In this document: piece by piece, positions 1-33,425 of the stretch
How the letters are laid out: each line of letters starts with the position of its first letter
How positions within the stretch are numbered: position 1 is the stretch's first letter
Assembly: GCA_918026815.1 (NCBI GenBank)
Contig: CAKJVC010000104.1
Location: forward strand, 1 to 64,000
Direction of reading: 5' to 3'
DNA from: Chalara sp. BL73
Lineage: Eukaryota > Ascomycota > Leotiomycetes > Helotiales
DNA length: 64,000 nt
The notes under the pieces: model-generated
What the model was told of the DNA's origin: nothing
Database searches by the model: none
Seen by the model: the letters and a program-made list of their open reading frames with translations, nothing else
Program-made: the position numbers and the translations under genes

Positions 1-50
1 GCTAATTTCGAGCTTGACAAGCCGTTACCAAAACTTTCTAGTCTATCAAA

Positions 51-2040: not shown

Positions 2041-2533
2041 CAGTATTTCCTGTTCAATGTATACGTATTAACCTATATTACGTATTGTAATTTTGCATAG
2101 TATACATTTAGTTGTCCCTTTTTTGTAGTGCTTTACAATGCTTTGTAGTAAAACCCTCCCTTCCCCACCACAAGAATATCTTTATTCTTATCATCCTAGA
2201 GATGCCTTCTAATCTCATCTTCTCCCAGCAATTCCTAACGAATATTTTGAGCAAAAAGAAAACAACGAATGAATAACAAAGGCTCATAATAGTGTCGGTA
2301 TAGTACGAGAAAAAAAACTAAAAACTATTAGCTCTAGCGCATGAATGGTAACCCGGAAGTATAATTCCCTCGGTGATAATATTCCGGAAACTGACTCCTA
2401 AACATTGTGATAATTTCATCCCTGTTACTTGTGACTACTCTAAATTGGAGTTTCTTCCGTGGCATGATATTGTAGGAGCATTTCCCGTCCGATAAAGTCA
2501 AGAATCCAACACTTCAGAACGCAGAAATTAAAA
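2041..2533. other. Intergenic, FMO to dehydrogenase (copy 1)
   Basis: AT-rich spacer between the FMO stop and the dehydrogenase ATG. It serves as 3' region of one and promoter of the other. I see no further gene; the same spacer recurs at 13478-13966. Confidence 0.6.
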
Positions 2534-6701: not shown

Positions 6702-7462
6702 GGGCCGCTTCCCTAATGGTTGGAGGTGCTTGAGCTTCTGTCGGGTTCCGACTAGACGAACAATTTGAAAATACAGTAGGTATAAAAGGCTTCTGAGGCA
6801 ACAAAAATGTGTGTGCAGGTCTGACAAGCAAGTTGGCAAGAGCCAATCTTTGATATTAATGTTGTTGCTATGATTTCCCCGCACTTCGCTTACTGTAACT
6901 TTCAAGTCTAACTCAAGTTACCTTAGTTAACATAAAGGTATTGCTTATGTCATATCAATACTGGAAACTGTCATGATTCAGCACTGTTGTTCTTATCATC
7001 CTGCAGCAGTGTACACTTGTGGTAAAGTATAATATCTTACTGAGAGTATTGACAGGTCTATCCTACTAACTACACTTTCTAGAGCGGTATCTGCCCTGTT
7101 CTTAAGTAGTCTTACCTTTAGCAACCATCAACTTTTCCCCTGTAAAGGGGAATGCAAGGACGGAGTGAGTCCTGGAGATTTACCGTGGTTCACCTTCCAG
7201 CCATCGCCCTTGCGCAGTATCGTTGTGGAGGAAAATCCTTGCCAAGATACCAGATTGCGAAGACCAGAGTCAGGCACGGAAATGCAATTCCGAACATCAC
7301 AAACGTATTTCGGAACAAATTGCCCCACCCAAGCTCATGGAATTTTAGATATTACTTTCTCATGATACCCAAGGTGCTTGGATGTATGCTGGTATTGTAA
7401 TGTGTCGCAAAGTCTCCTGATCCAATCTGATCCAAGCAACTCAAAGGACGACTTGACACAGC
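6702..7462. promoter_or_regulatory. Divergent promoter between two regulator genes (copy 1)
   Basis: About 760 nt between the start of the minus-strand regulator and the plus-strand regulator at 7463. It contains an inverted repeat with CCG at 7290-7292 and CGG at 7311-7313, in arms CAATTCCGAA and TTCGGAAC. Everted CGG triplets are a known class of Zn2Cys6 site, so autoregulation is possible; this is inference. The 5' limit depends on which Met the minus-strand gene uses (6905, 6701 or 6671). Confidence 0.4.
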
Positions 7463-9177
7463 ATGGGCAGCATTTTGGAACTCAATGCGACTCAACGTGA
7501 CAGCGAACACTTGGACCTCAGTCCAATTGCGGAGTTTAACACCGGTGCTGCCGCCACTTCAGCTATTAAAGATGTAATTCAAATTTCTGATCCAGCCCAG
7601 TCCAAAAGACGACGACGACGGGGTAAGAGGTCTGCTAAGGCCTGTACTGTCTGCCATCGGAGGAAAGTCAGGTGCAATGTCATTGTTTATGGAGTACCAT
7701 GTTCAAATTGTGAGCATGACGAAGTTCAGTGCACCGTTCCCGTCAAAATTCAGTACGAAGTGCCATTTTTAAATATAGTTGCTCATCTACTACAATTGGT
7801 GATACAATTGCTGACGTTTGCTTTACAGCGCGAACCAAAAAGTGATTCCACCACCAGAGTTAATCATGAGCTCCAGCGAGGATGGAGTCCGTTCCAGAGG
7901 AATGAACAGCAATGTCTCAAAGCAAGTCTTTGCTCCGTCTCAGATACAGGAGCATACCTCGCACAAGTCTATACAAAAGAACACGGTAATTCACAGCGCA
8001 ACGGGCTTCCACTACCTACCGCCCCCGGCTTGTTCAGGCATATCTCTTCTCGAAATATTCACACCTTTCCCTCCACATATAGGAGAGAGGGAGGCAAGAT
8101 ACTTGCGATCACATGACGCACTCACTTTACCGCAAGCAGAGTTTCGGGAGCAGTTGTTGAAGGCATATATAGAGTTTGTGCATGGACACCTGCCTGTGAT
8201 TGACCTAGACGACTTTCTTACCATGGTCGAATATAGCGATTCGAAAACTGGCTTCAACAGCATGACCAGGAAAAGCGCAACACACCACATTAGTTTCCTA
8301 CTCTTTCAGGCTGTTATGTTCGCTGCAGTTGGTTATGTGAGTACGGAAGTGCTACAAAAGGAGGGTTTTATGAGTAGAGAGAGCGCCAAGAAAATATTTT
8401 TCAATCGGGTAAAGGTATTCAAAGAAAAATTAGACGCCGAGTTTATACACGCACTAATTGTATGGCTCAGATTTTGTACGATTTCGAAATTTGTGTTGAT
8501 CGCCTTATAACTATCCAATCTCTGCTTCTCATGACGCTTTGCCCAACAAATGGAACACCGAATAGAGTTATTAAGGACGCATGGTACTGGCTTGGGCTAG
8601 CCATCTCCCTTGCCTATGTTCTGGGACTTAATCGGGATTTTCCTTCTCAGGATCCAAACCCGCGGAAAAACGCCTTGAGAGAAGGATATGGTGGGTTACA
8701 TTCATAAGAGAACACACATTATCCTCAACGTCGAGCTCTATACTTCCAAGAATACCTCGTATTAAAAGGGAGGATTCTCATATCAGAATGCTGAGCTTGG
8801 AAGACTTTGACCTAGATAAAAGTCCAGCTAGATACGAGGAAATTGATGAAATTAGAATGAGGATCAATGCAACAGACTGTGTAGAGAAGGCAATAATTTG
8901 TTGGTGCAGCAATGAGTCTCTAATCTCCAAATCCCTGGCCAACAAGGCAACAAGGTCGCCCGCTGCATCGCCCATACACCTCCCTTCCATCCCACAATCA
9001 CCGCACACTCAATGCCGAGACAAGCTTTGGACATCTGAAGACGAAACCGAAAGTTCCTCTGTTGAAAGAAGCACAAATGAAAAGCCTGTATCTTCGCTAC
9101 CTTCCGGACTCAATATAGAGAGCGAGTTTGGCGACTTTGTGGAGTATCTCCAAGACTCTATCATGGAAAATAAATAG
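7463..9177 (+). pseudogene. Zn2Cys6 transcription factor B, copy 1 (frameshifted)
   Basis: Same gene as 19063-20778. The zinc cluster and middle domain read open, but one A is missing from the run at about 8667 (five A instead of six), which ends the frame at 8707 instead of 9177. The downstream part is still present in another frame. Because the only change is a homopolymer length, it may be a sequencing error. Confidence 0.75.
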
Positions 9178-9857
9178 TCATAAACAGCAATTTTTGACAT
9201 GAGGATAGCAGTTCGAGGAATGAGATGCTAGGGTTTTATATTCATGATATCAAAGGCTTACCCCAGTATCGATAACTAGATGACCGAAAACATTGTCAGG
9301 GCAAACGTGTGGGCAGGTAAAACCACGTATCATAAAATGGGTTTGAGAGCAATGGGCGTGTCAAAATGGCTCTTTCCCGGGTTAAAATTTCTTGTGAAGC
9401 TCGATGAGACTTTTTTGAAGAGACCGAGAGTGGTTTTACAGAGGCCCCGGGTTGACTAGTAGAAAAACCCGAGAAATCGGTCTAATCAAGCTTGGTAATC
9501 ATAGTTGCAAATAATATTTTGAGACCTACCTAGAAACAGTAACTAGGAATTGGCATCAAAGAAGTGTGACAGGCATTGTAGTTGATTCTGGCACGCGCAA
9601 TGAAGGCGATGGCTTCCATTCTTCCATTGCTTTTTAGTCGTGAATTGATAAATCCTCCTCTACGTTTTATTGCAATGCTGTTGATTAATAATGAAAGACT
9701 CATGGAATAGTGGATAGGTTAACACAGAGTTTGTATGAAGGAGCACTTTATATTTAGGCCAATATATCTTAGTTGAAATGAATAGGTTGAGTTTTGATTT
9801 TAGTCACCGCTAAACTTCGACTATTGCCTTCCAAGGTGTTAAAATTAATAATACTCT
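9178..9857. other. Intergenic region with decayed short ORF (copy 1)
   Basis: Between regulator B and the minus-strand UstYa gene. It holds the counterpart of the 78-residue ORF at 20883-21119, but shortened homopolymers (t run near 9413 and cccggg near 9449) break it here. Confidence 0.5.
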
Positions 9858-10946
9858 TCACGGTTTAACCTCTGGCATATTATGGTGAAAATCAACTGTA
9901 GTCCACGCATGCTGCCTGCCCCATTCTAAAATCTCGTTGTAATTTCGACAAGTTCGAGGGTTAAGGTTGCGTTCGCAAGCTCACCCTTGACTTGCCATGT
10001 GTAGGTAATAAAGGTGGTATCAGGGCGACACATAAGGGCTTGACGGACTAGATCAGCGCAGTGGTCTACAATGTTTAAGTTAACAATATATTCAAATAAA
10101 TTACTGCAGTAAGTAAAACCATCTTCCTGCTCGGAAGCGGGAAAGAAGCCAAGATGGGATAAACACGTGAACTCCCAAGATGCTGGTGAATCAATTCTTC
10201 AGGTTCCTGTGAACAATGGCTCCCTCGCATGGTAATAATCAAAATGTGAGTATTGCCATAATATTTTCTAAACATGGTCAGCAAGACGAACTTTAAACAA
10301 GCTTGAACCTCACAACGGATTACGTACAACACAATGCAATTGATGGAAGACAGCTAGATTTGCCATGTATCCTCCACCCATTTTCTTAGTCAGCTTTACT
10401 GTGTCCATTGGCGCTCCTATCTCTTGAAGTACTTCAAGTGAAACTCCAAACGGGTCAACTAGGTGGTGAAGAATAAATATTAACTAATATTCTTACCAGT
10501 CAAGAGAAGATGATCAACATATTCACTTACCATGCATTATCTCGTTCCAAGCAGCCTCGCCACGAGGGCCAGCTTGACGATACGGAGATGAAGTGGAGTC
10601 TGTGAATCGTTTGGTTTCGTAGCTGTAATCAAAATGATTGTCAAAGCAAGCTTCAATATTGAATTAGCAACGCAAACTATATCTTCAAATAGATACGTAC
10701 TAATGTTGTTATAGACCTCTTTAGGCTCTCTGACACATTCATCGGTCCGAAACTGCAGATTCAAAGATGCAATAAATAGCGAAAGCGACAATAGCAGAGA
10801 CGCGCCATGTACGATCACAGCCCACGAGAACCTCAGCGATTTCTTCTTAGTCATCAAAATTGGAAACCTTTCTCTTTTAAAAGTTCTTCCCTCTCAAGTG
10901 AAACGTCTTCTAGCATATTCTTTTCCGTGTAATTCGTTTCATCCAT
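9858..10946 (-). pseudogene. UstYa/DUF3328 protein A, copy 1 (multiple frameshifts)
   Basis: Counterpart of the intact gene at 21463-22550. Differences that break the frame include four missing bases near 9961, altered bases near 10167-10180 and 10207, and one missing T near 10877 in the N-terminal exon. The membrane segment and both HxxHC regions can still be recognised. Either a dead copy or poor consensus of the same locus. Confidence 0.75.
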
Positions 10947-11427
10947 GGTGGGTGGTAGTGATGTTGTTGGTCCGTTGAGCGAGAGACGGCGAAGTGCGGA
11001 AAACACTAAAAGTGGGCGATCATGGGTTTTATACTATCGCGAGCAATCTGGGTGATTTAGCGGTTCTCTAGTGCTTACTTACTAAATTACAAAGTGCTAT
11101 CGTGTGATGAAGAATGAACCAAATTCACTGTACATTTCAAGTCGTGCGGCAGTTCAAATTTCCTACTTCCTAATGCATAATATCGACCAGACTCAGTACT
11201 TCAGATCAAAATCAATCTAACACTCAAGATGACTACGGCCAAGGCTACATAATTCAGCCAGAATTCGCTTAGTTGCCAGTCTCATAGGGAGTAAGCATTT
11301 GAACTATCTAATCTCTTCTTCAAAATCCTCAATCCATTTTATTTATCATCAACGGCAAAGTTGGACCCAAAGATTTAGCCCTTTTCAGATTACAATACTC
11401 ACTTCCCTAATACTTGTATAATTCTAT
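10947..11427. other. Intergenic (copy 1)
   Basis: Spacer of about 480 nt between two minus-strand UstYa genes; promoter of the first. No additional gene seen. Same sequence at 22551-23031. Confidence 0.5.
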
Positions 11428-11597
11428 CTAGGGCGGCGTAGGATAGATCTTTGATCCCAGCGGAATTGGTAAGTCGCTGTTATCAGGAGTAGTAGGAATT
11501 TTATTTTCATGAATCCACTCTCTCTACGCTTCAATATCGCGGCATTTATGCCACGTGTTAAAATTCGCGAACGGATCGGGCTTTGTTTGATCCACTG
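11428..11597 (-). pseudogene. 3' stub of UstYa/DUF3328 protein B at duplication junction
   Basis: Only the last part of the gene that is complete at 23032-24202 is present, up to the QWIKQ region; the rest is replaced by FMO sequence at 11598. It also has two compensating small indels near 11520-11535 compared with the intact copy. It cannot encode an oxidase because both HxxHC motifs are gone. Confidence 0.85.
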
Positions 11598-15176: not shown

Positions 15177-15272
15177 TCACTTACGCACATTCGAACTCAA
15201 CAGAGTTAGAGATCTCATCGAGCCAGCTTTCAGCTGATCTGTGTTTCGGCATGCGAGGGAATTCTTAGCATG

Positions 15273-18200: not shown

Positions 18201-18301
18201 ATACATACAGTACAGGCAGTGGAGATGTGTCGCGCTTTTGAAATACCATTCCCAGCATCCTTGTCAGGCATTTTTAGTGGCAATTGTATGGGGACGACCA
18301 T
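15273..18301 (-). CDS. Zn2Cys6 transcription factor A (fungal_trans type), intact copy
   Basis: Multi-exon regulator. Near residues 30-57 the spliced N-terminus gives ACTWC, CRNRKVKC and PSCSNC, a complete Zn2Cys6 cluster. The intron after CRNRKVK uses a GC donor (gcaagt), a rarer but accepted type. A leucine-rich dimerisation helix follows (VQLLQDRVLLLEDLLKKHG), then the fungal-specific domain with GQLRYFGATSNL, GLHLDL, TFWGVYIHDK, GRPWSI and QYYAISILLHRPFF. Nuclear DNA-binding regulator, probably pathway specific given its place inside the cluster. Start chosen at MVVPIQ (18301); MPDKD at 18271 is an alternative. The splice between the exons ending near 17420 and starting near 17385 is uncertain. 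Confidence 0.85.
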
Positions 18302-19062
18302 GGGCCGCTTCCCTAATGGTTGGAGGTGCTTGAGCTTCTGTCGGGTTCCGACTAGACGAACAATTTGAAAATACAGTAGGTATAAAAGGCTTCTGAGGCA
18401 ACAAAAATGTGTGTGCAGGTCTGACAAGCAAGTTGGCAAGAGCCAATCTTTGATATTAATGTTGTTGCTATGATTTCCCCGCACTTCGCTTACTGTAACT
18501 TTCAAGTCTAACTCAAGTTACCTTAGTTAACATAAAGGTATTGCTTATGTCATATCAATACTGGAAACTGTCATGATTCAGCACTGTTGTTCTTATCATC
18601 CTGCAGCAGTGTACACTTGTGGTAAAGTATAATATCTTACTGAGAGTATTGACAGGTCTATCCTACTAACTACACTTTCTAGAGCGGTATCTGCCCTGTT
18701 CTTAAGTAGTCTTACCTTTAGCAACCATCAACTTTTCCCCTGTAAAGGGGAATGCAAGGACGGAGTGAGTCCTGGAGATTTACCGTGGTTCACCTTCCAG
18801 CCATCGCCCTTGCGCAGTATCGTTGTGGAGGAAAATCCTTGCCAAGATACCAGATTGCGAAGACCAGAGTCAGGCACGGAAATGCAATTCCGAACATCAC
18901 AAACGTATTTCGGAACAAATTGCCCCACCCAAGCTCATGGAATTTTAGATATTACTTTCTCATGATACCCAAGGTGCTTGGATGTATGCTGGTATTGTAA
19001 TGTGTCGCAAAGTCTCCTGATCCAATCTGATCCAAGCAACTCAAAGGACGACTTGACACAGC
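18302..19062. promoter_or_regulatory. Divergent promoter between the two regulators (copy 2)
   Basis: Identical in layout to 6702-7462; the CCG/CGG inverted repeat recurs at about 18890-18913, about 150 nt upstream of the ATG of regulator B. A TATAAAAGG string on the plus strand lies at about 18380. Confidence 0.4.
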
Positions 19063-20778
19063 ATGGGCAGCATTTTGGAACTCAATGCGACTCAACGTGA
19101 CAGCGAACACTTGGACCTCAGTCCAATTGCGGAGTTTAACACCGGTGCTGCCGCCACTTCAGCTATTAAAGATGTAATTCAAATTTCTGATCCAGCCCAG
19201 TCCAAAAGACGACGACGACGGGGTAAGAGGTCTGCTAAGGCCTGTACTGTCTGCCATCGGAGGAAAGTCAGGTGCAATGTCATTGTTTATGGAGTACCAT
19301 GTTCAAATTGTGAGCATGACGAAGTTCAGTGCACCGTTCCCGTCAAAATTCAGTACGAAGTGCCATTTTTAAATATAGTTGCTCATCTACTACAATTGGT
19401 GATACAATTGCTGACGTTTGCTTTACAGCGCGAACCAAAAAGTGATTCCACCACCAGAGTTAATCATGAGCTCCAGCGAGGATGGAGTCCGTTCCAGAGG
19501 AATGAACAGCAATGTCTCAAAGCAAGTCTTTGCTCCGTCTCAGATACAGGAGCATACCTCGCACAAGTCTATACAAAAGAACACGGTAATTCACAGCGCA
19601 ACGGGCTTCCACTACCTACCGCCCCCGGCTTGTTCAGGCATATCTCTTCTCGAAATATTCACACCTTTCCCTCCACATATAGGAGAGAGGGAGGCAAGAT
19701 ACTTGCGATCACATGACGCACTCACTTTACCGCAAGCAGAGTTTCGGGAGCAGTTGTTGAAGGCATATATAGAGTTTGTGCATGGACACCTGCCTGTGAT
19801 TGACCTAGACGACTTTCTTACCATGGTCGAATATAGCGATTCGAAAACTGGCTTCAACAGCATGACCAGGAAAAGCGCAACACACCACATTAGTTTCCTA
19901 CTCTTTCAGGCTGTTATGTTCGCTGCAGTTGGTTATGTGAGTACGGAAGTGCTACAAAAGGAGGGTTTTATGAGTAGAGAGAGCGCCAAGAAAATATTTT
20001 TCAATCGGGTAAAGGTATTCAAAGAAAAATTAGACGCCGAGTTTATACACGCACTAATTGTATGGCTCAGATTTTGTACGATTTCGAAATTTGTGTTGAT
20101 CGCCTTATAACTATCCAATCTCTGCTTCTCATGACGCTTTGCCCAACAAATGGAACACCGAATAGAGTTATTAAGGACGCATGGTACTGGCTTGGGCTAG
20201 CCATCTCCCTTGCCTATGTTCTGGGACTTAATCGGGATTTTCCTTCTCAGGATCCAAACCCGCGGAAAAAACGCCTTGAGAGAAGGATATGGTGGGTTAC
20301 ATTCATAAGAGAACACACATTATCCTCAACGTCGAGCTCTATACTTCCAAGAATACCTCGTATTAAAAGGGAGGATTCTCATATCAGAATGCTGAGCTTG
20401 GAAGACTTTGACCTAGATAAAAGTCCAGCTAGATACGAGGAAATTGATGAAATTAGAATGAGGATCAATGCAACAGACTGTGTAGAGAAGGCAATAATTT
20501 GTTGGTGCAGCAATGAGTCTCTAATCTCCAAATCCCTGGCCAACAAGGCAACAAGGTCGCCCGCTGCATCGCCCATACACCTCCCTTCCATCCCACAATC
20601 ACCGCACACTCAATGCCGAGACAAGCTTTGGACATCTGAAGACGAAACCGAAAGTTCCTCTGTTGAAAGAAGCACAAATGAAAAGCCTGTATCTTCGCTA
20701 CCTTCCGGACTCAATATAGAGAGCGAGTTTGGCGACTTTGTGGAGTATCTCCAAGACTCTATCATGGAAAATAAATAG
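19063..20778 (+). CDS. Zn2Cys6 transcription factor B, intact copy
   Basis: Three exons. A basic run of five Arg precedes the zinc cluster with Cys at residues 61, 64, 71, 80, 83 and 90 (ACTVCHRRKVRC, PCSNC). After an intron beginning gtacga the protein continues with a fungal_trans-type region (HGHLPVIDLDDF, then ILYDFEICVDRLITIQSLLLM, DAWYWLGLAISLAYVLGLNRD, RRIWWVTFIRE) typical of regulators of secondary metabolism and xenobiotic genes. The C-terminal 100 residues are Ser-rich and acidic, a possible activation region. It faces regulator A head to head across a shared promoter. Copy 1 of this gene is frameshifted. Confidence 0.85.
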
Positions 20779-21462: not shown

Positions 21463-22550
21463 TCACGGTTTAACCTCTGGCATATTATGGTGAAAATCAA
21501 CTGTAGTCCACGCATGCTGCCTGCCCCATTCTAAAATCTCGTTGTAATTTCGACAAGTTCGAGGGTTACTTAAGGTTGCGTTCGCAAGCTCACCCTTGAC
21601 TTGCCATGTGTAGGTAATAAAGGTGGTATCAGGGCGACACATAAGGGCTTGACGGACTAGATCAGCGCAGTGGTCTACAATGTTTAAGTTAACAATATAT
21701 TCAAATAAATTACTGCAGTAAGTAAAACCATCTTCCTGCTCGGAAGCGGGAAAGAAGCCAAGATGGGATAAACACGAACCAAGATGCTGGTGAATCAATT
21801 CTTCAGGTTCCTTGAACAATGGCTCCCTCGCATGGTAATAATCAAAATGTGAGTATTGCCATAATATTTTCTAAACATGGTCAGCAAGACGAACTTTAAA
21901 CAAGCTTGAACCTCACAACGGATTACGTACAACACAATGCAATTGATGGAAGACAGCTAGATTTGCCATGTATCCTCCACCCATTTTCTTAGTCAGCTTT
22001 ACTGTGTCCATTGGCGCTCCTATCTCTTGAAGTACTTCAAGTGAAACTCCAAACGGGTCAACTAGGTGGTGAAGAATAAATATTAACTAATATTCTTACC
22101 AGTCAAGAGAAGATGATCAACATATTCACTTACCATGCATTATCTCGTTCCAAGCAGCCTCGCCACGAGGGCCAGCTTGACGATACGGAGATGAAGTGGA
22201 GTCTGTGAATCGTTTGGTTTCGTAGCTGTAATCAAAATGATTGTCAAAGCAAGCTTCAATATTGAATTAGCAACGCAAACTATATCTTCAAATAGATACG
22301 TACTAATGTTGTTATAGACCTCTTTAGGCTCTCTGACACATTCATCGGTCCGAAACTGCAGATTCAAAGATGCAATAAATAGCGAAAGCGACAATAGCAG
22401 AGACGCGCCATGTACGATCACAGCCCACGAGAACCTCAGCGATTTCTTCTTAGTCATCAAAATTGGAAACCTTTCTCTTTTTAAAAGTTCTTCCCTCTCA
22501 AGTGAAACGTCTTCTAGCATATTCTTTTCCGTGTAATTCGTTTCATCCAT
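21463..22550 (-). CDS. UstYa/DUF3328 protein A, intact copy
   Basis: Membrane-anchored oxidase-like protein. The N-terminal exon has a short cytosolic tail and one membrane helix (FSWAVIVHGASLLLSLSLFI). Spliced exons then give YETKRFTDSTS, GEAAWNEIM, the first HxxHC motif in VFHQLHCV, and the second in HQHLDHC followed by ADLVRQALMCRPDTT, the classic UstYa order. UstYa proteins catalyse oxidative cyclisation in ustiloxin-type RiPPs, with the HxxHC pairs required. Start chosen at MDETNYTEKN (22550). Four introns fit GT-AG. Copy 1 of this gene (9858-10946) is broken. Confidence 0.85.
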
Positions 22551-23031
22551 GGTGGGTGGTAGTGATGTTGTTGGTCCGTTGAGCGAGAGACGGCGAAGTG
22601 CGGAAAACACTAAAAGTGGGCGATCATGGGTTTTATACTATCGCGAGCAATCTGGGTGATTTAGCGGTTCTCTAGTGCTTACTTACTAAATTACAAAGTG
22701 CTATCGTGTGATGAAGAATGAACCAAATTCACTGTACATTTCAAGTCGTGCGGCAGTTCAAATTTCCTACTTCCTAATGCATAATATCGACCAGACTCAG
22801 TACTTCAGATCAAAATCAATCTAACACTCAAGATGACTACGGCCAAGGCTACATAATTCAGCCAGAATTCGCTTAGTTGCCAGTCTCATAGGGAGTAAGC
22901 ATTTGAACTATCTAATCTCTTCTTCAAAATCCTCAATCCATTTTATTTATCATCAACGGCAAAGTTGGACCCAAAGATTTAGCCCTTTTCAGATTACAAT
23001 ACTCACTTCCCTAATACTTGTATAATTCTAT
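22551..23031. other. Intergenic between UstYa A and UstYa B
   Basis: About 480 nt, promoter of UstYa A and 3' region of UstYa B. No further gene seen. Confidence 0.5.
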
Positions 23032-24202
23032 CTAGGGCGGCGTAGGATAGATCTTTGATCCCAGCGGAATTGGTAAGTCGCTGTTATCAGGAGTAGTAGG
23101 AATTTTATTTTCATGAATCCACCTCTCTACGCTCTCAATATCGCGGCATTTATGCCACGTGTTAAAATTCGCGAACGGATCGGGGCTTTGTTTGATCCAC
23201 TGGTGAGTTATGATGCCAACATCGGCATTGCACACTGGCAGTATCAACGTTAGTAGGTATTTTACATTGTAGATTTTACGTCACTGCAAAACTCGGAGAC
23301 CTACTGATATTTTGACGAAGCATTTCGATGCAATGAGCTTCCATGAAGTCAGCCAGGAATATTAGAGTTGAGATAGGGAAACTACTTAAGTGCAATTTCA
23401 CAGTCCAGGGGCGGTCCGTGAATTCCAAGGCCATGTGGTCCTTATCCATGTAATAATCCCTATGCACTCCTTTTCGGAGTAGATTGAGGCACTATTAGTT
23501 TAGTAAAGAAAACTGAACACCCAGGTGAACATAACGTACGTGCATGTGATGGCTAACTTCCAGAAATCCAATATATCCCCCTCCATACTCAGGAGTAAGC
23601 TTAGATGCATCTGGATCTGCTCCACGTAGTTGGAAGAATTGTTTATCTGGAATACTGGCATACTTGACTATCCAGACCTATGAGAAACGATTTGAAATTA
23701 TGGGTTAGTTAACAGAAGGAGGCTGACCGTAAGCCCATTTCTCCCATGCTGCGTCAACCTTTGGACTAGGATCACCAGTATACTCGTTAGAATAGCCTAG
23801 CGTTCCGTTGAATTTGACCATTTTATACCCCGGCTTCATCTCTTTCAGGACAGGTGCTGAAGCTCCCGTTAGTGGGAAACCCTTGGTCTATCTCAAGTAA
23901 CAGTCACACTTACAATAAGCAGAAGTATGCTCAAGACATTGCTGATCCAAGTTCACTGACCTTGAGCCCATCCAAAACATAAGGCCATTACTGATCAAAA
24001 ACAGGAACATTACGATACTAGCTACTATAGCTCTGGCTGTAAATCTCTTCTTGATCTTCCTCTGGTAGATCCCAAGCAGAGCTTCCCCTGGGTTCGCGAA
24101 GCCATCATCCGAAGCATCATCATCAGGTTGCTTCTCCAGAGACACACGAGTATAGGATGGTTGCGGTACCCCAAACATTATCAATTCTTCTTCTGATAGC
24201 AT
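23032..24202 (-). CDS. UstYa/DUF3328 protein B
   Basis: Complete UstYa-type protein spanning the right edge of the duplication. Exon 1 (MLSEEELIMFGVPQ) contains a membrane helix (IVASIVMFLFLISNGLMFWMG). Later exons give GGYIGFLEVSHHMHC with the first HxxHC (HHMHC), LLRKGVHRDYYM, then HLTHC across an intron as the second motif, followed by IEMLRQNIMCNADVGI. The C-terminus is WHKCRDIESVERWIHENKI, the usual DUF3328 ending. Only its last exon part is present in copy 1. Predicted to act in the secretory pathway on the cluster precursor. Start ATG at 24202. Confidence 0.85.
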
Positions 24203-25408
24203 CGATAGGACTTCGCTGGGCTAGAAGGGAAACCAGAGACATAAGACCAAAGTACGTCCAAATGGCAAGAAAGTTCTATAGATCAATGGATTCGATAGAA
24301 GTAAGTACTTTGTGGAAACTGGCATGAAGTCTCCATTATGGTGGCTTGCTGCCTCCTTTACTCCTCCGCATTAATAAGTACAAATTGGGAAGGTGCTGAG
24401 AATGCAGACTCGGCGTTATGTGTTCTATCGTTTCCTAGCTCTTTGAAACAGACGTGCCACACTAGAGACCAATGGCCACTGCATTATTTTTGATGATATA
24501 AGCCCACATGTTGCATTGCATATTACGCTCATAATGGCGCCACTTCTAATCCTGGTGGACCTGTATTAGAATCGCCTGGTAGAAGTTCCCACAAATATAA
24601 TACTCTTAATATCTGTATAGTCAGGTCGCCGGCGATCATCATTCCCCCACCCACCTTAGCCGAAAAATTCAAGAGGCGAACTAGGATTTAACTGACTTAA
24701 GGAGACTTTAGCAGGGCGTGGTTTTTTTACCTGCCTATTCAAGCTCGTCTGCTAGCCACTGGACTCCATGGGCGCTCTTACATCGACACAAAGTATATTG
24801 CACTTGCATATACGAATAAGAGCTGTTTCCTAATCTTTGAACGGCTGTATCACAAATTCCACCCAAAGTTGCTAAAGTGGGTCTCTGGATCCTACTATAT
24901 TGAAAATCCTATGGTATATTTGGTCCATAGCTCTATTATGTGTTAATGCAAAGATAGTCACATAGCATTACGCGGCGGATGAGCTACAAGCCGCCAGATC
25001 AAGGCCATTTCGCCCTTTTGAAGATGCCTGACTTTTGTTTCGCCGTTGAGAAATTTCTAGTTGTGCCGCTTCTTCCGCCTTATTCTTGAGCTGACCTTTT
25101 GTGGCAGCTGGTGGATGGACCATGCAACTAAACCCTCAGTCGTTTGATCCATCAGTTCTTCGCCGCCCGTTGCTTAATATCCCTGTAGTCAATTTCCCCC
25201 TCATTCTTCAACCTCAGAATTTGGGCTTTATTTTTCACAAATTGCAGAAATAGGTCATCTAGCCATCCTAGCTCCACTCTACTCAAACCCGGCATTATAA
25301 CCTTATAAATCTCTTGTATTGCCCTCTGCAGCGTTCTACACATTTGAATTGCTCAGCTCAGATTCACTTCTTAAGAATTCAATAATTGTACCACTTGCTC
25401 TTCCCAAC
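24203..25408. other. Intergenic, promoter region of UstYa B and precursor gene
   Basis: About 1.2 kb between a minus-strand gene and the plus-strand precursor, so a shared divergent promoter. A TATAAAT box lies at 25304-25310. I see no convincing gene; a 63-residue minus-strand ORF at 25152-25343 has no recognisable motif. Confidence 0.5.
25304..25310 (+). promoter_or_regulatory. TATA box of the RiPP precursor gene
   Basis: TATAAAT about 100 nt upstream of the ATG at 25409, a normal distance allowing a 5' leader of about 70 nt. Confidence 0.45.
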
Positions 25409-25987
25409 ATGGTCCGCCTCACTAGCTTGCTTGTCTCTGCCTTGCTATCTCTGGCGACAGCTGCGCCGTTTCCTCATGGCGACCACATAGAGGGCAAAGT
25501 CTCTGCTCGAGAACCAACCAACATCTACCCTTCCGTGAGCTTTTTAGGAGATCCGGAGGCTGAGAAGGTCAAACGAACCAACATCTACCCTTCCGTGAGC
25601 TTTTTAGGAGATCCAGAGGCCGAGAAGGTCAAACGAACCAATATCTACCCTTCCGTGAGCTTTTTAGGAGATCCAGAGGCTGAAAAAGTTAAACGAACCA
25701 ACATCTACCCTTCCGTGAGCTTTTTAGGAGATCCGGAGGCTGAGAAGGTCAAACGAACCAACATCTACCCTTCCGTGAGCTTTTTAGGAGATCCAGAGGC
25801 CGAGAAGGTCAAACGAACCAATATCTACCCTTCCGTGAGCTTTTTAGGAGATCCAGAGGCTGAAAAAGTTAAACGAACCAACATCTACCCTTCCGTGAGC
25901 TTTTTAGGAGATCCAGAGGCTGAGAAGGTCAAACGAACCAACATCTACCCATCCGTCACTCTAGCTGGAGACCCAGAGGCCGAATAG
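25409..25987 (+). CDS. Repeat-containing RiPP precursor (Kex2-processed, dikaritin type)
   Basis: 192 residues, no intron. Residues 1-19 are a signal peptide (MVRLTSLLVSALLSLATA, then APFPHG). From residue 37 there are eight repeats: seven identical 20-mers beginning TNIYPSVSFLGD and ending EAEKVKR, and a shorter last unit reading TNIYPSVTLAGDPEAE. Lys-Arg at each repeat end is a Kex2 site. The stretch constant in all eight units, TNIYPSV, is the best candidate core; the SFL/TLA part varies and GDPEAE looks like an acidic spacer. Such precursors are cut by Kex2 and cyclised by UstYa proteins, and five canonical UstYa genes surround it. The mature product is unknown. I use the MVRLTS start because upstream in-frame sequence is not signal-like. 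Confidence 0.92.
   Translation: MVRLTSLLVSALLSLATAAPFPHGDHIEGKVSAREPTNIYPSVSFLGDPEAEKVKRTNIYPSVSFLGDPEAEKVKRTNIYPSVSFLGDPEAEKVKRTNIYPSVSFLGDPEAEKVKRTNIYPSVSFLGDPEAEKVKRTNIYPSVSFLGDPEAEKVKRTNIYPSVSFLGDPEAEKVKRTNIYPSVTLAGDPEAE
25517..25984 (+). repeat. Eight tandem 60-nt repeats within the precursor gene
   Basis: Unit length is exactly 60 nt, starting 25517, 25577 and so on to 25937. Synonymous differences (ccggaggct/gagaag; ccagaggcc/gagaag with aatatc next; ccagaggct/gaaaaagtt) give the order A-B-C-A-B-C-D-E, so a three-unit block was duplicated. Confidence 0.95.
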
Positions 25988-26835
25988 GGCAGTGAAGGTC
26001 TACGCCCAGGATTATGGGGTTTCCTGTTCGTCAGTCAATTTTGGAAAGGGAAGGAGGTCTATGAAGAGAAGTTTTGTGCGCGGCAAAGTGATTTCTAGTG
26101 GAGGACATGCTACATGGAACAAGCTTAGCGGGTGGGGATCTCTTCCAAATGCAAGATCAACTGCCTCCCAACCATTAATTGAAATTTCCTTCTGTAAATG
26201 TGATTAATCTCGCACTTCCGACGAAAGCTATCACTGTATTGACGTTGTGCCTTCCCACTTTTCTATTCCCAGAGATATTCTGTGATCAACGGCCAAGGCT
26301 TGGCTTGGCTTGGCTTCACTACGCCGTCAGGTTACATCACAGCGACGCGTCGCAGGAACCCCTCGCTGACATGCATAGCGAAGGCGATCCGCTATGTGTA
26401 GCAGCGAAGGCTTCCCCGCATGTCAATCCCTAGTAAATATTCCGGGATAGACCTTACCTGTGACCCTGATGCCACGTCTGACGTTTATTGTGTCAGCACT
26501 ATCTACAAGGATTTCGCAGGAAGCTGCTAACTTAGTGACCCATAGTGTAAGATGGAATCTACGGTCAGCCTGACAGATTCGGCATTGTCTCAGTTAAGAA
26601 TGTTAACAACGCTATATTTGTTCTACGCCACTATCATGTTAGTTTTCCATAGTGTGTATGTAGTATTCCGCCGCTGGCATCTAACCCATTACTTAGATCT
26701 TGAGCATCTTGATACCTAACTACAACTTACCTGAGCAGCACAACGAATAGCTGGAATACCAAAATTTTCGATTTTTCATTCCCAGTAATCTTTTTTAGGT
26801 TTGACCGATATACGACCTAGCATATCCGATACACT
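25988..26835. other. Intergenic after precursor
   Basis: About 850 nt. Contains four GGCTT units near 26295-26315. No gene supported. Confidence 0.5.
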
Positions 26836-27614
26836 ATGGATACCATCTACAAGAAAGTGTATGATAATCGTTCAACTTAGCTTAACTATAGACTGACTGT
26901 ATCTTTAGTATCAGCACTTCCGACGAGGATGGAATTGATTCACCTGAAGATTACCTATTGGAGAGTGAGAAGCAAGATGTGCATACTCCTAACCGCCTCC
27001 AATACCTTCGCCTGCCATTCACCAGGTTGAAATCAAACTTCAAACCGGTAACATACGGTCGTGAGAGATCTAATCGTACCGTTCTCTCAATTCTGAGCTA
27101 CCTCATTTTCTGGAGCCTCGCTCTCTGGGGGACTATCAGCCTTGGTCTATACGCACACAAATATATTTCTGACCACCGTGTCATTGATTGCTCGTGTGGT
27201 GCGTCTATAGCTGAAGCCATGTTCAAAGGCTGCAAGTATGATACCATGGCCGCTGCGTGGCTACCACCTGCCTGTCGCGACGACGAACTTAGTAGCCAAT
27301 TTAACCAAGCTGGGCCAGGGCCTGACGGGCAGTGGTACTACTGGGCCGACCGAAATCAGACAAAGCTGCTTAGCCTGACGGAGCTATCCCAACTGGCTGA
27401 TTCGGGTCGACCATTCTTCACCACGTGGGATTGGCATGTTGCACACTGCTTCTGGAGGTGGAGGAAGCAGATTCGTGGAAGGGGCATAATGGCGGCTCAT
27501 CTGGATGCGGATGACGCATATGGGCATATTATGCACTGTGAAGAGATCATGAAAGCTGATCCGAAGGCGGTGGTTGCCTCAGGAGTAGCTTTGAATGGCT
27601 CAACTTTCTCTTAG
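26836..27614 (+). CDS. Divergent UstYa-like membrane protein 1 (twin HxxHC)
   Basis: Two exons: short exon 26836-26858 (MDTIYKK), intron 26859-26908, then a long exon. After an acidic tail (SPEDYLLESEK) there is one membrane helix (SYLIFWSLALWGTISLGLYA), then CSCGASIAEAMFKGCKYDTM, AAWLPPACRDDELSSQF and GPGPDGQWYYWAD. Two HxxHC motifs follow: WHVAHCFWRWRK and YGHIMHCEE. This is a fungal family of unknown function often found in secondary-metabolite clusters; it shares the helix-plus-two-HxxHC plan with UstYa but not its wording. An oxidative role is inferred. Its closest relative in the window is at 29390-30189. Confidence 0.75.
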
Positions 27615-27888
27615 TGAACAGCATATGGGAACTTGCAACGGCCTTTCGGACACCATTTCTTTTCATAATTTCAAGTTTTTGCGTGGATATCCGTACATGA
27701 TGATATCAATCAATTATGAAAGCCCCATGAAATCTATCCCAGAGTGTTTAATCCTTTAACTAGTTCACGTTGTGTCTCAGTTTGAAACTATCATGTGTAA
27801 TAAATCTTTATAGTTATTTCAGTATCTTATGATGATCAGCCCCGAAGCCAGAATGCACTACACATTTTACTATACTCCGAATCACAAC

Positions 27889-28819
27889 TCATGTAGTTAA
27901 ATCTTCAAATGGAAATAATTTCCTTAACGTTGGTTTGAGCTCTGTCCAACGATTTTGATATGTCCAATCAAATAGCGCTCTAAAATCGCGGCATTGATGC
28001 GGGTTCTCATTTCCAAAACCAAGGAAATTTTCTGTGGGGTCCAGTGTAATGTCCGCGTTGCACACCAGTGATTGTCGAATCCAGTCCACACAGTGAAGAA
28101 TGTGTTGAAATGACAGAATTTTAATATTATACTTAGGATCTGACTCGCGCCTTTCCATATGATTCTCAATCATTTGCTGTTACGAAATTTAGTCAATGCG
28201 CGTTGGAGATAGTTTTAACTTACAAGGCAGTGTAGCTGGTGAAATACGGCCACTTGATAAATACTGTGACCGCTGTTTGTGGGTGATTCCTTGGAGGGTA
28301 CAAGTTGTTGCTCTCGAGCCCAAGTTGTGGGTACTGATACTACGCCTTCTCCTTCTAACCATGCCTGAGCTTCAATTCTTCGCAACAAAGACTTATTTCA
28401 TAACCACTCACCTGGAATCAGGTTTCTCCAGAAGGTAGAATCAGATCCCGGAATTCTCATGGTAGTGCCTTCAAAGTATATGTCGTAGAATGCAACTGTC
28501 GTGTTGTAGTCCTTGAAACGTCCATCTGAAGTGGAAAAATAATCATATGTCAGTAAGAAAGCTAATATCATCGGTTACACATGCTACGAAATACCAGCTC
28601 ACAATCGCTTTGATAGCCCGGGTTCCCTCGCTGACTATACACTGTTCCCACCCAATATAAAAAAACAATGGCAACATTGATGAGCTCCAGAGATACCAAA
28701 ATCAGGATGATTGATCGACGCCGTTTTGAACATCGACTGCATTGAGTCTCATATACGAACTCGTCATCGGAATTTCCATCGGGTAGAAATGCATACTTTT
28801 GTTTCGGAGAAGCCATCAT
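27889..28819 (-). CDS. UstYa/DUF3328 protein C
   Basis: Intact UstYa-type protein. Exon 1 carries MMASPKQKYAFLPDG and a membrane helix (IILILVSLELINVAIVFLYWVG). After introns with donors gtgagc, gtgagt and gtaagt the protein gives YNTTVAFYDIYFEG, AQAWLEGEGVVSV, the first HxxHC in VAVFHQLHCL, and the second in LSFQHILHCVDWIRQSLVC with NADITL, then HQCRDFRALFDWTYQNR. Convergent with the gene ending at 27614. An upstream in-frame Met at 28873 would add 18 residues; I chose the MM pair at 28819 because the extra stretch is hydrophobic and unlike the family's tail. Confidence 0.85.
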
Positions 28820-28873
28820 TGCCCTTGACTTAGGGGACTCAATGAGAAACACAATTACTGACAAACGTGGCAT

Positions 28874-29389
28874 ACTGCTATACAGGATTATGGTCAGGGG
28901 GTATCTAAAGTATTTTGTAGGATGAAATTAGTAATTGATAAGTCCACCTCCACCTTATATACGAAGTCGCCATAAAGCTGAAACCACCAAAATTTGCATT
29001 AGGGTTATAGTATCTTACATATTTGAAAGTGGGTCTGCGAAACCTAAATCAGTCATACCGATGCCGCATAAGCGCCTTATGAAAGGCGAAAGCCGGAATT
29101 TAGGTGAAAGCCCCGCATATCTCGGCATACGGAATATCTAGCCTCACACCAGGGAAGGTGTGTTCCATCCAGTGAGCTTGGATATCTTTGACTAGGCATA
29201 GAGTTGTAGTAAAGAAAATCCCACTATCAAAAACTCAGGTATCTGAGCGATCCCCTTCCACAATCATCTGGCCTATTTGGTCAGATAATATCCTAAATAA
29301 TTTGTCCCTACATAAGTCAGTTTTAAATTCTCACCGGAAAGATCACTACCCAGCACAACTACTTCATCAAGAATATCAGAAGGTACTAA
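28874..29389. other. Intergenic
   Basis: Divergent spacer between UstYa C and the next plus-strand gene. No gene seen. Confidence 0.45.
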
Positions 29390-30189
29390 ATGTTAACAAT
29401 GGGTGATGAGTAAGATATCACATTAGTCCACGCTTTCTAATGGGATTTTGAAAAGAGATTCTGATATCAAGATATAGCTCGAATTCTTTAGCTCAAAGCC
29501 ACCAAAGAAGCCAAACTGGTTATGACTATCTCCTCTCTACGGAAGAGAAAGAAATATTCGACAACGATTTTGAAAGGCGACAGCCAGGAAATATCAGAAA
29601 AAGCTGGTGTTTTTTCATCTGCAAAATGGCCTGGAAACTAGCTATCACTTTTCTAACACTTTGGGGACTTCTCAATATCAGTCAGAGCTATATAGTTTCT
29701 CTCCTACCACCCAGAGTGGCTGACTGTAATTGCGGAAGCTCAATTAAAGAGGCAATTGCCAATGGGTGCAAATACGATGCGATGGCTACTTCATGGCTTC
29801 CTCCAATTTGCCGTGACGACGAGCTTTCTGCCCAATTCGACTCTGCAGGTCCTGGAGGCGCGTGGACCTATTATGCAAATCAGGACGGAAATCAAACTTT
29901 AACTATAGAAGAGGTATCTCTACTAGCAGAGAAGAAAGGTCGTGAGGCAGAATTTTGGACTACACATGAGTGGCATATTAATCACTGCTTATACTATTGG
30001 CGTAAGGAGAGCCTTGCGCGCAAAAGTGGCGGAAACTTGATTCTGGAGAGTAGTTTTGAAGGCGACTATCACGTGCACCACTGTGAGGAAGTACTGAGGT
30101 CCTGCAGACCACTTGAGGAGATCAATACACGAAGCAGTGCGGGGCTTAATTCGGACTTGGTAGAGGGAGACAGTGTTACTAAGCAGTGA
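29390..30189 (+). CDS. Divergent UstYa-like membrane protein 2 (twin HxxHC)
   Basis: Same family as 26836-27614. The long exon runs open from 29492 (after ttctttag) and reads TGYDYLLSTEEKEIF, a membrane helix (LAITFLTLWGLLNISQSYIV), CNCGSSIKEAIANGCKYDAM, SWLPPICRDDELSAQF, then HxxHC motifs in WHINHCLYYWRK and YHVHHCEE. A tiny first exon from ATG 29390 with donor gtgatg would join in frame; that part is inferred, and the next in-frame ATG is 29626. The spacing and wording closely follow the other member, so the pair probably arose by gene duplication and acts in the same pathway. Confidence 0.7.
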
Positions 30190-31094
30190 GGTTGCTGACC
30201 CAATTTTGATTGTGGACAAGAATAGAGAAAACGTCGAAGTGACAGTCGTACCCCCCAAAGTTTCTACTACTACCGTGAATTCGATTCATTACTGGTTAGT
30301 TATAATAGCAAGGCTGCTGGCATAAGATTATTAATATCCAGCGATAATGGTTAAGTACGCCTCACTATGGTTTATCGAAGCCCTATTAAGAGCGACGAAC
30401 CTATAAGCAACAAGGATCTATGCTCCATATACACTTTATGTTCGTGCTTACGTGCATAAAGCTGACAAAGGAAAGTATCTATAATACATTATTGATTCTT
30501 AATCTCTTTTCCGGTTAGCCCACCTGAATTTTTCCATAGCAAGAATACTACATTGGCATATATTACAGTGCCATTATGGGTTTTAAAAATTTGAGTTGCT
30601 CAGTTTAGTGCCGTTTTGGAATAGTAGTATTGACATCTTTCTTTCCCCACAGTAGCTAGCGCTTATTCTATTTTTTTTATTGCATACGCGTGCTTATGCA
30701 CATGCATGCATGTATCTGCAGGCAGGATTGTGACGGCGGGATGGTAACCGAGCTAGTGGGCTCGTCGCTAATCGCCTACAACTCCTATTTCTCTCTCCGA
30801 AAATTTACACATTGTGTAGCCACCTCAGTAACACTTTCGGCATGATATATGGCGTATTATTTCCACCAATTGTTAATTTGCGACGGCCCGCTGGTGCTGC
30901 AACTGTAGGTCAGCTGAAACTTGAAAGCTTCTGTGGATTCTCCACAGATGGGCAAATTGCGTCAGCAGTCTTCACTATTTCCAGTATCTCGCGATGCCCT
31001 TCACATATGAGCTTCTGATGCTTCGTGTGTATTATACCTAGACCAAGTTCTACTTACATCTGTCTACCAATCTTTGCCTGCAAGCAAGAACGAT
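30190..31094. other. Intergenic
   Basis: About 900 nt between two plus-strand cluster genes, with a short run of gcatgcatg-type alternation near 30700. No gene supported. Confidence 0.45.
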
Positions 31095-32053
31095 ATGTCA
31101 TCAGTTCCAAGTTCTGAAGATGAAATATTACTACCTAAGACAGAGAGAGAAAACGAGTTACATGAACATCGCTTCCTCAAGAAGTTGAAGCACAGGACTA
31201 AAACAAAAGGTTTACGGGGGAAATCTACCTTACTCGCAGTTCTGCTGAGTTTAGTCACTTCAGTCATTGCAATTCTAATTATGCATAATATTATACTGTC
31301 TCAGTTCGAACATTTTAAAGATGAAAGAACAAGCACTCTCCCAGGTTTGGGCATTCCAAGCTGTATGTTAGAGTTATGGCCGCAAGTATATGAATTTAAA
31401 GGATAAAACTCACCACATGGCTTAGTGGGAACGACGCAATCCGTCTTCATGCCGGAACAAATATACCGCCAGCCGCCATCGAATGCCAGCTATCAAGCCT
31501 GGATGAAATTATTTCCGAGTACGTACTCAATGTCTCCCCACAACTTCACGGTAAATCAAAATCTTGATTAACTTATATAATAAACAGAAGGAAAAGGCTA
31601 TGTATCTCTTTTCAAAATGCGCGAAGTGGGGAGAATCCCAGATTTCATTGAGCATGAGAGCGCAGACGGGACAGGACGTTTCTGTATCGCAGCGTTCCAT
31701 CAAATGCACTGCCTGGTATGTTTGAGACCTAAACATAAACTCCTCTCTGAAATTATTTCTCATGCGATATCCAGTATCTCCTTCAATCAGCATTATGGGC
31801 TGCTCTAGATGGGACGATCCACGCTCCAAGCTCTCACACTCTCCACTGCCTGGACTATCTGCGGACTAGCATTATATGTGCGGCTGATACAACATTGGAG
31901 CCGTTCAAATCAAGATTTAGTGGTTTTGCCGGAGGCAACGCAGTTGACGGATTTGGGTCAAACCACCAATGCCGCAACTTTGATGAATTGTATCACTGGG
32001 CTGAGAGAATGCGATACAATGATGATACAGATGCGGAAAGGTTCGAAGGATAG
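31095..32053 (+). CDS. UstYa/DUF3328 protein D
   Basis: Intact across four exons. Exon 1 (MSSVPSSEDEILLPKTE) has a basic stretch and a membrane helix (STLLAVLLSLVTSVIAILIM). Then GTTQSVFMPEQIYRQPPSN, YQAWMKLFP, EGKGYVSLFKM, the first HxxHC in AAFHQMHCL, and the second in SHTLHCLDYLRTSIIC followed by AADTTLEPF. The ending NHQCRNFDELYHWAERMR is the standard DUF3328 terminus. The introns start gtatgt, gtacgt and gtatgt. Predicted single-pass secretory-pathway oxidase of the cluster. The wording around the second motif is closest to classic UstYa. Confidence 0.87.
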
Positions 32054-32436
32054 TTCAAAATTTTAATCTAGCCATTCAAGCACCGCTCTAAAGAGATGTC
32101 CTATAAAAAGACACCTTCAATATCACAAACTATGTATGAATCTAGTATAGCCCTGTATCCTATGAATAGTGACTACAAATGGCCTTTCGAGCAAAGACTA
32201 GGAAATGGAAATGTAGAAATGTAAGATTTCGCGGCGTTCCAGTGGTACGGAGATGCCCGGTCCGTAGTCTAACAGCCAATGACGACCTAGTGGGTATTAC
32301 TAAAGGCGCATAAGTCAAGCAAAGCTTTCTGTTCGGTCTTCTCCATTCTCTCATCTATATTCCCCCGTTACGAATAGAAATACGTCGAATAGGATCACAA
32401 CACAGCAAGCACAACACATCATTGAAACTATTAAAT
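32054..32436. other. Intergenic
   Basis: About 380 nt between UstYa D and UstYa E. No gene seen. Confidence 0.45.
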
Positions 32437-33425
32437 ATGAAAGCCATCACTGGTATAGATGATCATAAGTATGAGCCGCTAGGAAACCTGGAGTCACAAT
32501 GCGAAAGGGACAACTTAGTGCTTCCGGAGGAAACCGGCCCTAGACACAAATCCCTTCTTAGATGGACTTGTAACGATAGCTTCCTTTCTAAAGGCTTTAC
32601 GAGATATCTTATTAACAGCTTGCCTTGGATTCTCGTCTTCATCCTCTCAGCAGCACTGGTCTATAGTTATATTACTCGACCTTTGAATGCTCAACTATTA
32701 TATTGTACGTATTCTGAGAAATAGAATTTCTTTGGCAGCAATGGCACGAAGAAACGATAAGTGGCTTACTTGGTTTCGTGAATGGACAGCTCCAGCAAAT
32801 AGCATTATCAGATATAATACACAAGTCTTTCACTACGATATTGATACCCGCTATCAGGATGATCCATCGCCAGAAGTTGACAAGGCGTGGGAAGATCTGT
32901 TTGACTGTAAGGCATCCCGTCTCTTACTCCTAGTTCCAATTCAACGGGCATCAAAATATACTGACATTTTCTTCATAAATAGTCGGTGGCATCAAACTTA
33001 ACTCATTCGAAGCTGCCCATATTCCCAACAAAACATGGCCAATAGCACAGGAATCGGGATCTTACTACGCAACTCTTTCTGTCTTCCACAACCTTCACTG
33101 TTTGAATAACATCCGTAAAGCTTTATATCCATCTTACTATAACGTCGCCCCAATCCTAAAACAAGGACATATGCCACACTGCCTGGACTTACTACGACAG
33201 AGCATTATGTGCAGTTCGGATATATCGGTTACCGTGTGGCAATGGGTGGACCGTGATGGAAAGGCAGAGCAGCTTGTTAGTGTGCCACACACTTGTCGAA
33301 ATTTTGAGACAATTAGGAAATGGGCTCTAGGCAGGAAGATGGATGTGTCGTTTGATGCCACTACAGACTTAAGGTCCGACCCTTTGGCTGGTGAGGTACC
33401 AGCGGAGTTGCAGGAGTCTACGTAA
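32437..33425 (+). CDS. UstYa/DUF3328 protein E
   Basis: Three exons. Exon 1 starts MKAITGIDDHKYEPLGNLES and holds a membrane helix (LINSLPWILVFILSAALVYSYI). Exon 2 gives MARRNDKWLTWFREW and the typical DDPSPEVDKAWEDLFD. Exon 3 reads GGIKLNSFEAAHIP, the first HxxHC in VFHNLHCLNNIRKALYP and the second in GHMPHCLDLLRQSIMC with SSDISV, then HTCRNFETIRKWA. Intact and in the same direction as UstYa D, which ends 383 nt upstream. Confidence 0.87.

What the first reader, a model, noticed from the sequence alone, without database searches (positions are those of the whole stretch)
21463..33425. Candidate undescribed RiPP pathway: eight-repeat TNIYPSV precursor with seven HxxHC membrane proteins
The precursor has a signal peptide, eight repeats with Lys-Arg sites and a constant core TNIYPSV. 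That core differs from those I know for ustiloxin (YAIG), phomopsin (YVIPID), asperipin (FYYTGY), victorin (GLKLAF) and epichloecyclins. Five canonical UstYa proteins and two divergent relatives are more oxidases than the one or two in the best-known pathways, suggesting several cross-links or multi-step oxidation around Tyr, Ile, Pro and Val. No tyrosinase or methyltransferase of the ustiloxin type is in the window.
Basis: partly seen in the sequence, partly recalled or inferred. Interest (0 to 1): 0.9.

Follow-up and report, generated by a model that had tools for sequence, protein, structure and literature searches.

The report
Fungal peptide cluster, unnamed oxidase family
A fungus carries a gene for a small repeated peptide beside seven probable copper-type oxidases that would tailor it; two of them belong to an unnamed protein family that also sits beside other such peptide genes, sometimes with no known tailoring enzyme near, so it may be a second toolkit for making modified fungal peptides.

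Summary
A 192-aa secreted-type precursor (25409-25987 +) has eight TNIYPSV repeats and seven Lys-Arg sites. Seven spliced neighbours (21463-33425) each carry two HxxHC motifs: five are Pfam UstYa/DUF3328, two (C, E) are not. It is most likely a Kex2-processed, UstYa-tailored RiPP cluster (dikaritin-like), not described in the papers I could search. The argument from oxidase number is weak: phomopsin has five.

New: (1) Aspergillus alliaceus has consecutively numbered genes for fused E+C (ETB97_011435), a TNIYPGV precursor (011436) and the gene B orthologue (011437). So precursor + B + C + E is the conserved part; A, D, F and G are unproven. (2) C/E is a separate family, alignable to UstYa mainly around the motifs. 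Of its eight other loci in this genome, four lie within 10 kb of UstYa genes; three of the rest lie within 2 kb of another repeat precursor, with no UstYa match within 60 kb. C/E may therefore modify such peptides without UstYa, unseen by Pfam-based mining.

Correction: window 159-11597 is an indel-rich copy of 11598-23202, probably an assembly artefact. Product and chemistry are untested.

The parts
25409..25987 (+). Precursor gene, 192 aa: signal-peptide-like start, eight TNIYPSV units, seven Lys-Arg sites
23032..24202 (-). Gene B, UstYa/DUF3328, 6 exons, HHMHC and HLTHC; orthologue of A. alliaceus ETB97_011437
26836..27614 (+). Gene C, C-type member of the Pfam-less C/E family, 2 exons, HVAHC and HIMHC
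29390..30189 (+). Gene E, E-type member of the C/E family, 2 exons, HINHC and HVHHC
21463..22550 (-). Gene A, UstYa/DUF3328, 5 exons, HQLHC and HLDHC; membership in the pathway unproven
27889..28873 (-). Gene D, UstYa/DUF3328, 4 exons, HQLHC and HILHC; membership unproven
31095..32053 (+). Gene F, UstYa/DUF3328, 4 exons, HQMHC and HTLHC; close to Trichoderma and Xylogone proteins; membership unproven
32437..33425 (+). Gene G, UstYa/DUF3328, 3 exons, HNLHC and HMPHC; membership unproven
19057..20778 (+). Possible pathway regulator: Zn2Cys6 cluster and fungal transcription factor domain in separate exons; also present in the duplicate
   Evidence: role inferred from position only
159..11597 (.). 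Near-copy of 11598-23202, differing almost only by indels, holding a frame-broken copy of gene A near 9989-10893; probably an assembly artefact

Best explanation
This is a gene cluster for a Kex2-processed, oxidatively tailored RiPP with a TNIYP[S/G]V core. Shown: the repeat precursor, its conservation in two other sources, and consecutive gene numbers for precursor, gene B orthologue and C/E pair in A. alliaceus. Inferred: the precursor enters the secretory pathway; Kex2 cuts after the seven Lys-Arg sites; the X-Pro pair before the first copy (present in all three precursors) is trimmed by a dipeptidyl peptidase, which would put the mature N-terminus at Thr; membrane-anchored HxxHC enzymes facing the lumen, each holding two coppers and using O2, oxidise or cross-link the core, with Tyr the likeliest site. 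B, C and E are the conserved enzymes for this core; A, D, F and G, if they take part, add lineage-specific steps. C and E belong to a distinct family that shares the double-HxxHC core with UstYa and probably binds copper in the same way.
For: Repeat precursor with Kex2-type sites. Two homologues of 49 candidates, with TNIYP and the following V constant in 15 of 15 intact units. A. alliaceus 011435 (E+C), 011436 (precursor), 011437 (B) on one contig. B with C/E genes at near-consecutive gene numbers in Kalmusia and Trichoglossum. Two HxxHC motifs in 7 of 7 models. C/E profile aligns with UstYa over both motifs, E 6e-5. C model: disordered start, long helix covering the membrane segment, two helices carrying the motifs, the layout described for the copper enzyme CctR (PMC12435403).
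Against: No transcript, product or enzyme data. hhalign probability only 65%. C fails and E misses the Pfam UstYa cut-off. No structural neighbour in the PDB. In A. alliaceus only the B orthologue came up among 98 UstYa hits, so most of the seven are not shown to belong. Gene E's membrane segment is weak. Gene adjacency in A. alliaceus rests on gene numbers and equal contig length, not on reading the contig.
Confidence: 0.72

Rival explanations
1. The precursor yields a linear secreted signalling peptide (pheromone-like), and the HxxHC genes beside it serve other pathways.
For: 6120 of 7878 surveyed Kex2-repeat precursors have no DUF3328 gene near, and mating factors belong there (PMC7329392).
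Against: Seven double-HxxHC genes flank this precursor, and B plus the C/E pair keep company with a TNIYP precursor in A. alliaceus.
Confidence: 0.1
2. C and E are not enzymes of their own but helpers (dimer partners, copper or electron donors) for UstYa oxidases.
For: The CctR authors postulate an accessory protein for electrons or Cu(I) (PMC12435403). Four of eight other C/E loci lie within 10 kb of UstYa genes.
Against: C/E genes keep both metal motifs in 13 of 14 places, and three loci with a precursor have no UstYa match within 60 kb.
Confidence: 0.3
3. Two or more clusters overlap: precursor + B + C + D + E make the TNIYP product, while A, F or G belong to other pathways.
For: F has its closest relatives in Trichoderma and Xylogone, 45-53% over most of its length and 57% for one partial protein; no hit bears those names, though many have none. 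Best matches of A and G are 28-38%.
Against: All seven lie within 12 kb; the Kalmusia B model runs into an A-like N-terminus (24% over 117 columns).
Confidence: 0.35

Closest known systems
Phomopsin cluster (five DUF3328 genes per PMC7329392; other features recalled)
   Same: Kex2-repeat precursor with several UstYa genes; Tyr, Ile and Pro in the core
   Different: Different core; no tyrosinase match on this contig; two extra C/E-type genes
Asperipin-2a cluster (one DUF3328 gene per PMC7329392; AprY a copper- and O2-dependent cyclase per PMC12435403)
   Same: Repeat precursor with a Tyr-bearing core; UstYa-type cyclase
   Different: Different core, seven HxxHC genes instead of one, C/E family present
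CctR of cyclochlorotine biosynthesis (PMC12435403, whole text read)
   Same: One membrane helix and a helical domain with two HxxHC motifs (C model)
   Different: CctR acts on a non-ribosomal peptide; C and E fail the UstYa profile and have their own conserved Cys-rich, CRDDEL-bearing part ahead of the motifs
A. alliaceus ETB97_011435-011437 (hypothetical proteins)
   Same: Fused E+C, TNIYPGV precursor and B orthologue under consecutive gene numbers
   Different: C and E fused in one model; Gly for Ser in the core; no A, D, F or G orthologue seen

Membership tests
Kex2-processed repeat protein (KEP) | Signal peptide | tested here: met
   Hydropathy and sequence only, no dedicated predictor
Kex2-processed repeat protein (KEP) | Tandem repeats separated by Kex2 sites | tested here: met
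   Eight units, seven Lys-Arg
Dikaritin | UstYa/DUF3328 gene beside the precursor | tested here: met
   Five genes over the Pfam cut-off within 12 kb; B orthologue beside the A. alliaceus precursor by gene number
Dikaritin | Cyclic, oxidised product | not testable with these tools
   Needs LC-MS
Ustiloxin/phomopsin subgroup | Tyrosinase in the cluster | tested here: not met
   39 tyrosinase matches in the genome, none on contig C97
UstYa/DUF3328 (PF11807), genes A, B, D, F, G | Profile score over cut-off and two HxxHC motifs | tested here: met
   73-161 bits against 25; motifs
UstYa/DUF3328 (PF11807), genes C and E | Profile score over cut-off | tested here: not met
   C none, E 11.4 bits; among 49 family members 11 match, best E 3.5e-4
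UstYa/DUF3328 (PF11807), genes C and E | Two HxxHC motifs behind one membrane helix | tested here: met
   E's hydropathy is weak. This makes them UstYa-like, not Pfam members
UstYa/DUF3328 (PF11807), genes C and E | Copper- and O2-dependent activity as a dimer | not testable with these tools
   Reported for CctR, ApnU and AprY (PMC12435403), not for C or E

The most novel reading that the evidence does not exclude
C and E represent a second, so far unnamed class of fungal RiPP enzyme: double-HxxHC, copper-type membrane oxidases outside PF11807 that can modify Kex2-repeat peptides by themselves (minimal cassettes such as C/E - precursor - C/E at C3:975-980 kb of this genome) and are partnered with UstYa enzymes in clusters like this one. 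Part of the precursors that surveys list as unaccompanied by DUF3328, and so presumed linear, would then be modified.
Probability: 0.45. Interest if true: 0.78.

Novelty: new variant of a known kind. Interest (0 to 1): 0.6.

Why it matters
Fungal RiPP mining leans on PF11807 and a few known cores. A Pfam-less HxxHC family found beside repeat precursors, with or without UstYa, gives a new search handle, a way to test whether supposedly linear secreted peptides are oxidised, and possibly a simple one- or two-enzyme system for peptide oxidation. The TNIYPxV core with its conserved B + C + E set names the minimal genes to test first.

Tried and rejected
Foldseek against the PDB with models of C (pLDDT 82.6) and of the A. 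alliaceus B orthologue (pLDDT 68.6): 0 matches at E <= 0.001 each. PDB sequence searches with the first, later corrected model of B (one hit at E 0.36 to a polygalacturonate lyase) and with the UstYa profile (none). NCBIfam: none of five proteins hit. Pfam on three C/E proteins beside UstYa-free precursors: UstYa at E 0.059 for one, none for two. Nine paper searches (the PANTHER numbers were recalled) named no C/E-type family in the listings and passages that I saw. Rejected: counting the broken gene A copy near 9989-10893 as an eighth oxidase (blastn: 1 mismatch, 32 gap openings; MAFFT on a slightly different span: 16 mismatches, 30 gaps). Rejected: a tyrosinase-dependent ustiloxin route. Rejected as a precursor: a WHQHH repeat ORF at C132:241229 without a signal stretch, and an antisense ORF at C129:1002512 (absent under the stricter test).

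Partial inputs: P0004 (fusion) was left out of alignment A4, which holds C, E and 47 of the 48 hits. A5 holds 48 of the 98 hits. The tree used 32 rows; the divergent own-genome rows sit on long branches and their place is unsure. First versions of A and B, with an unspliced intron at the second motif, went into and were corrected.
Full report
What is there. The window is the first 64 kb of contig C97 of an unnamed assembly of 58.66 Mb in 199 contigs; its introns and named relatives point to an ascomycete (inference; no taxon was determined). The precursor lies at 25409-25987 +, 192 aa, with a hydrophobic start and eight 20-residue units beginning TNIYPSV. Seven Lys-Arg sites separate them. In units 1-7, 6 of 20 codons vary and all six are silent. 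The genome holds one match.

The seven neighbours. Spliced models each have exactly two HxxHC motifs: A HQLHC/HLDHC, B HHMHC/HLTHC, C HVAHC/HIMHC, D HQLHC/HILHC, E HINHC/HVHHC, F HQMHC/HTLHC, G HNLHC/HMPHC. Pfam: A, B, D, F and G are UstYa at 73 to 161 bits (cut-off 25), C has none, E 11.4 bits (first versions of A and B). Of 39 tyrosinase matches and 1 S41 peptidase match in the genome none lies on contig C97. Of 20 further window ORFs 12 had Pfam hits at E <= 0.001: flavin monooxygenase, alcohol dehydrogenase, Zn-cluster and transcription-factor domains, MFS, PhzF, GNAT and NRPS domains.

Relatives of the precursor. Of 49 candidates two matched: P0002 (111 aa, 952-base contig, no name) with TNIYPSVGFKGDPEEKVKR units and P0003, Aspergillus alliaceus ETB97_011436, with TNIYPGVGLAGEENEHAKR units. 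Read, TNIYP, the V two places on and a G four further are constant in 15 of 15 intact units (8, 4 and 3; P0003 also has one truncated unit); the sixth residue is Ser or Gly. In all three precursors the first unit is preceded by Ala-Arg-X-Pro (X Glu or Ser), which would suit a cut after Arg and removal of an X-Pro pair (inference from recalled alpha-factor processing).

Conserved neighbours. A search with C and E gave 48 hits of 3097 candidates, none with a Pfam domain. The best, ETB97_011435, bears the gene number before the A. alliaceus precursor; its first half is E-type, its second half C-type. A search with the five UstYa proteins gave 98 hits of 4608 candidates at E <= 1e-10; ETB97_011437, the number after the precursor, is the B orthologue (57% over 295 columns). 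Kalmusia sp. has E-, C- and B-type proteins at N0V90_004077, 004079 and 004081, Trichoglossum hirsutum a C/E and a B-type at GP486_002006 and 002008; Periconia and A. tanneri have both kinds on contigs of equal length, adjacency not seen. C-type and E-type separate in the tree, 9 and 9 rows, one change each, support 95/92. So precursor + B + C + E is the conserved unit. A, D, F and G are near but not shown to belong. Only the A. alliaceus case has a precursor in hand; the other genomes' precursors were not seen.

C/E as a family. Its profile aligns with UstYa over both HxxHC motifs and a Trp ahead of them, E 6e-5, probability 65%; 11 of 49 members match PF11807, best E 3.5e-4. The predicted fold of C (pLDDT 82.6, pTM 0.66) has a disordered start, a long helix at 53-88 that covers the membrane segment, and helices 173-190 and 200-214 that hold the two motifs, the layout described for CctR (PMC12435403). 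No solved structure resembles it. Some distant members (such as P0035, P0037, P0039, P0041 and P0047) lack intact motifs.

C/E elsewhere in the genome. C finds 14 places, E 13, the window's own included. Both motifs are intact in 13 of 14 ORFs; the one at C3:338 kb lacks them in the ORF read, perhaps because of introns. The 12 places outside the window form 8 loci. Four (C121, C84, C129:1865 kb, C132) lie within 10 kb of a PF11807 place; at most 1.7% of the genome is that near one of the 45 merged UstYa loci, binomial tail 5e-6, positions treated as uniform. I scanned 302 kb for secreted repeat precursors: the eight loci (158 kb), the window (64 kb), 40 kb of contig C49 (38.4 kb distinct, about 10 kb of it repeating the window) and eight 5-kb control stretches. 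Four were found, all within 2 kb of a C/E gene; 0 of 8 control stretches and no C49 stretch had one. Besides the window's own they are AALNAVKPDSEKR x6 between two C/E genes (C3:977 kb), AEPFEVIKR x5 (C3:340 kb) and a VGEVG..QVGYKR repeat (C129:1003 kb). At these three the nearest UstYa match is 576, 60 and 848 kb away, and a locally built UstYa profile finds none in the 10-20 kb fetched.

Mechanism. CctR binds two coppers per monomer at the double motif, needs O2 and electrons, works as a lumen-facing dimer and loses activity when the motif residues are replaced; ApnU (halogenase) and AprY (cyclase) are also copper- and O2-dependent (PMC12435403, whole text). By homology B should act in this way on the TNIYPxV core in the secretory pathway, with Tyr the likeliest site. 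C and E probably do likewise; the alternative is a helper of the kind that the CctR authors postulate.

Comparison with what is known. DUF3328 counts are 2, 5 and 1 in the ustiloxin, phomopsin and asperipin-2a clusters and 1.7 on average beside precursors that have any (PMC7329392 section 7). So seven HxxHC genes are many, five UstYa genes are not. New cores are expected: that survey lists 7878 precursors, 2560 without homologues (section 6), and 6120 without a DUF3328 gene near. It counted HMM profiles of the neighbours, so a family without a profile would not show. I could not open its supplements or the subscription survey of Aspergillus precursors (Nagano 2016, seen only as cited in PMC6339444), so I cannot exclude that the A. 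alliaceus precursor is listed somewhere. Other papers were seen as passages only: PMC12048977, PMC7099791, PMC12871659, PMC9233826, PMC6339444.

The duplication. Window 159-11597 equals 11598-23202 at 99.1-99.6%, with 1 mismatch and 32 gap openings in blastn and 16 mismatches and 30 gaps in MAFFT. Contig C49 carries the segment once: identical to window 1-860, then matching 12296-21660 (and copy 861-10051), and then departing; window 21700-23700 is not found on C49. Differences that are nearly all indels suggest assembly error rather than an old duplication. The precursor and genes C-G lie outside the copied span; gene A is inside it, and gene B's last 171 bases too. What lies left of gene A is uncertain.

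Verdict. What deserves attention is the C/E family.

Noticed in passing
window 159-11597 against 11598-23202; L010, L011 (C49): Head-to-tail copy that differs almost only by indels; the same segment lies once on contig C49, which departs from the window inside gene A.
   Followed up: partly
G000 C3:975087-980016 (L030, L031): Two C/E-type genes flank a repeat precursor (AALNAVKPDSEKR x6, no Tyr in the unit) with no UstYa match within 576 kb: a candidate minimal cassette.
   Followed up: partly
G000 C129:1002546-1004643 (L034) and C3:337833-339967 (L035): Two further repeat precursors 0.7 and 1.1 kb from divergent C/E-type genes, no UstYa match within 60 kb.
   Followed up: partly
G000 C184:102-117 kb and C82:1276-1280 kb: UstYa and tyrosinase matches lie together, as in ustiloxin or phomopsin clusters.
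   Followed up: no
window 54282-60613 -: NRPS domains (adenylation, condensation, carrier) in three long ORFs; a separate secondary-metabolite locus.
   Followed up: no
window 33685-34938 +: Model H next to gene G has a sub-threshold galactosyltransferase match (E 0.056); possible tailoring gene or cluster border.
   Followed up: no
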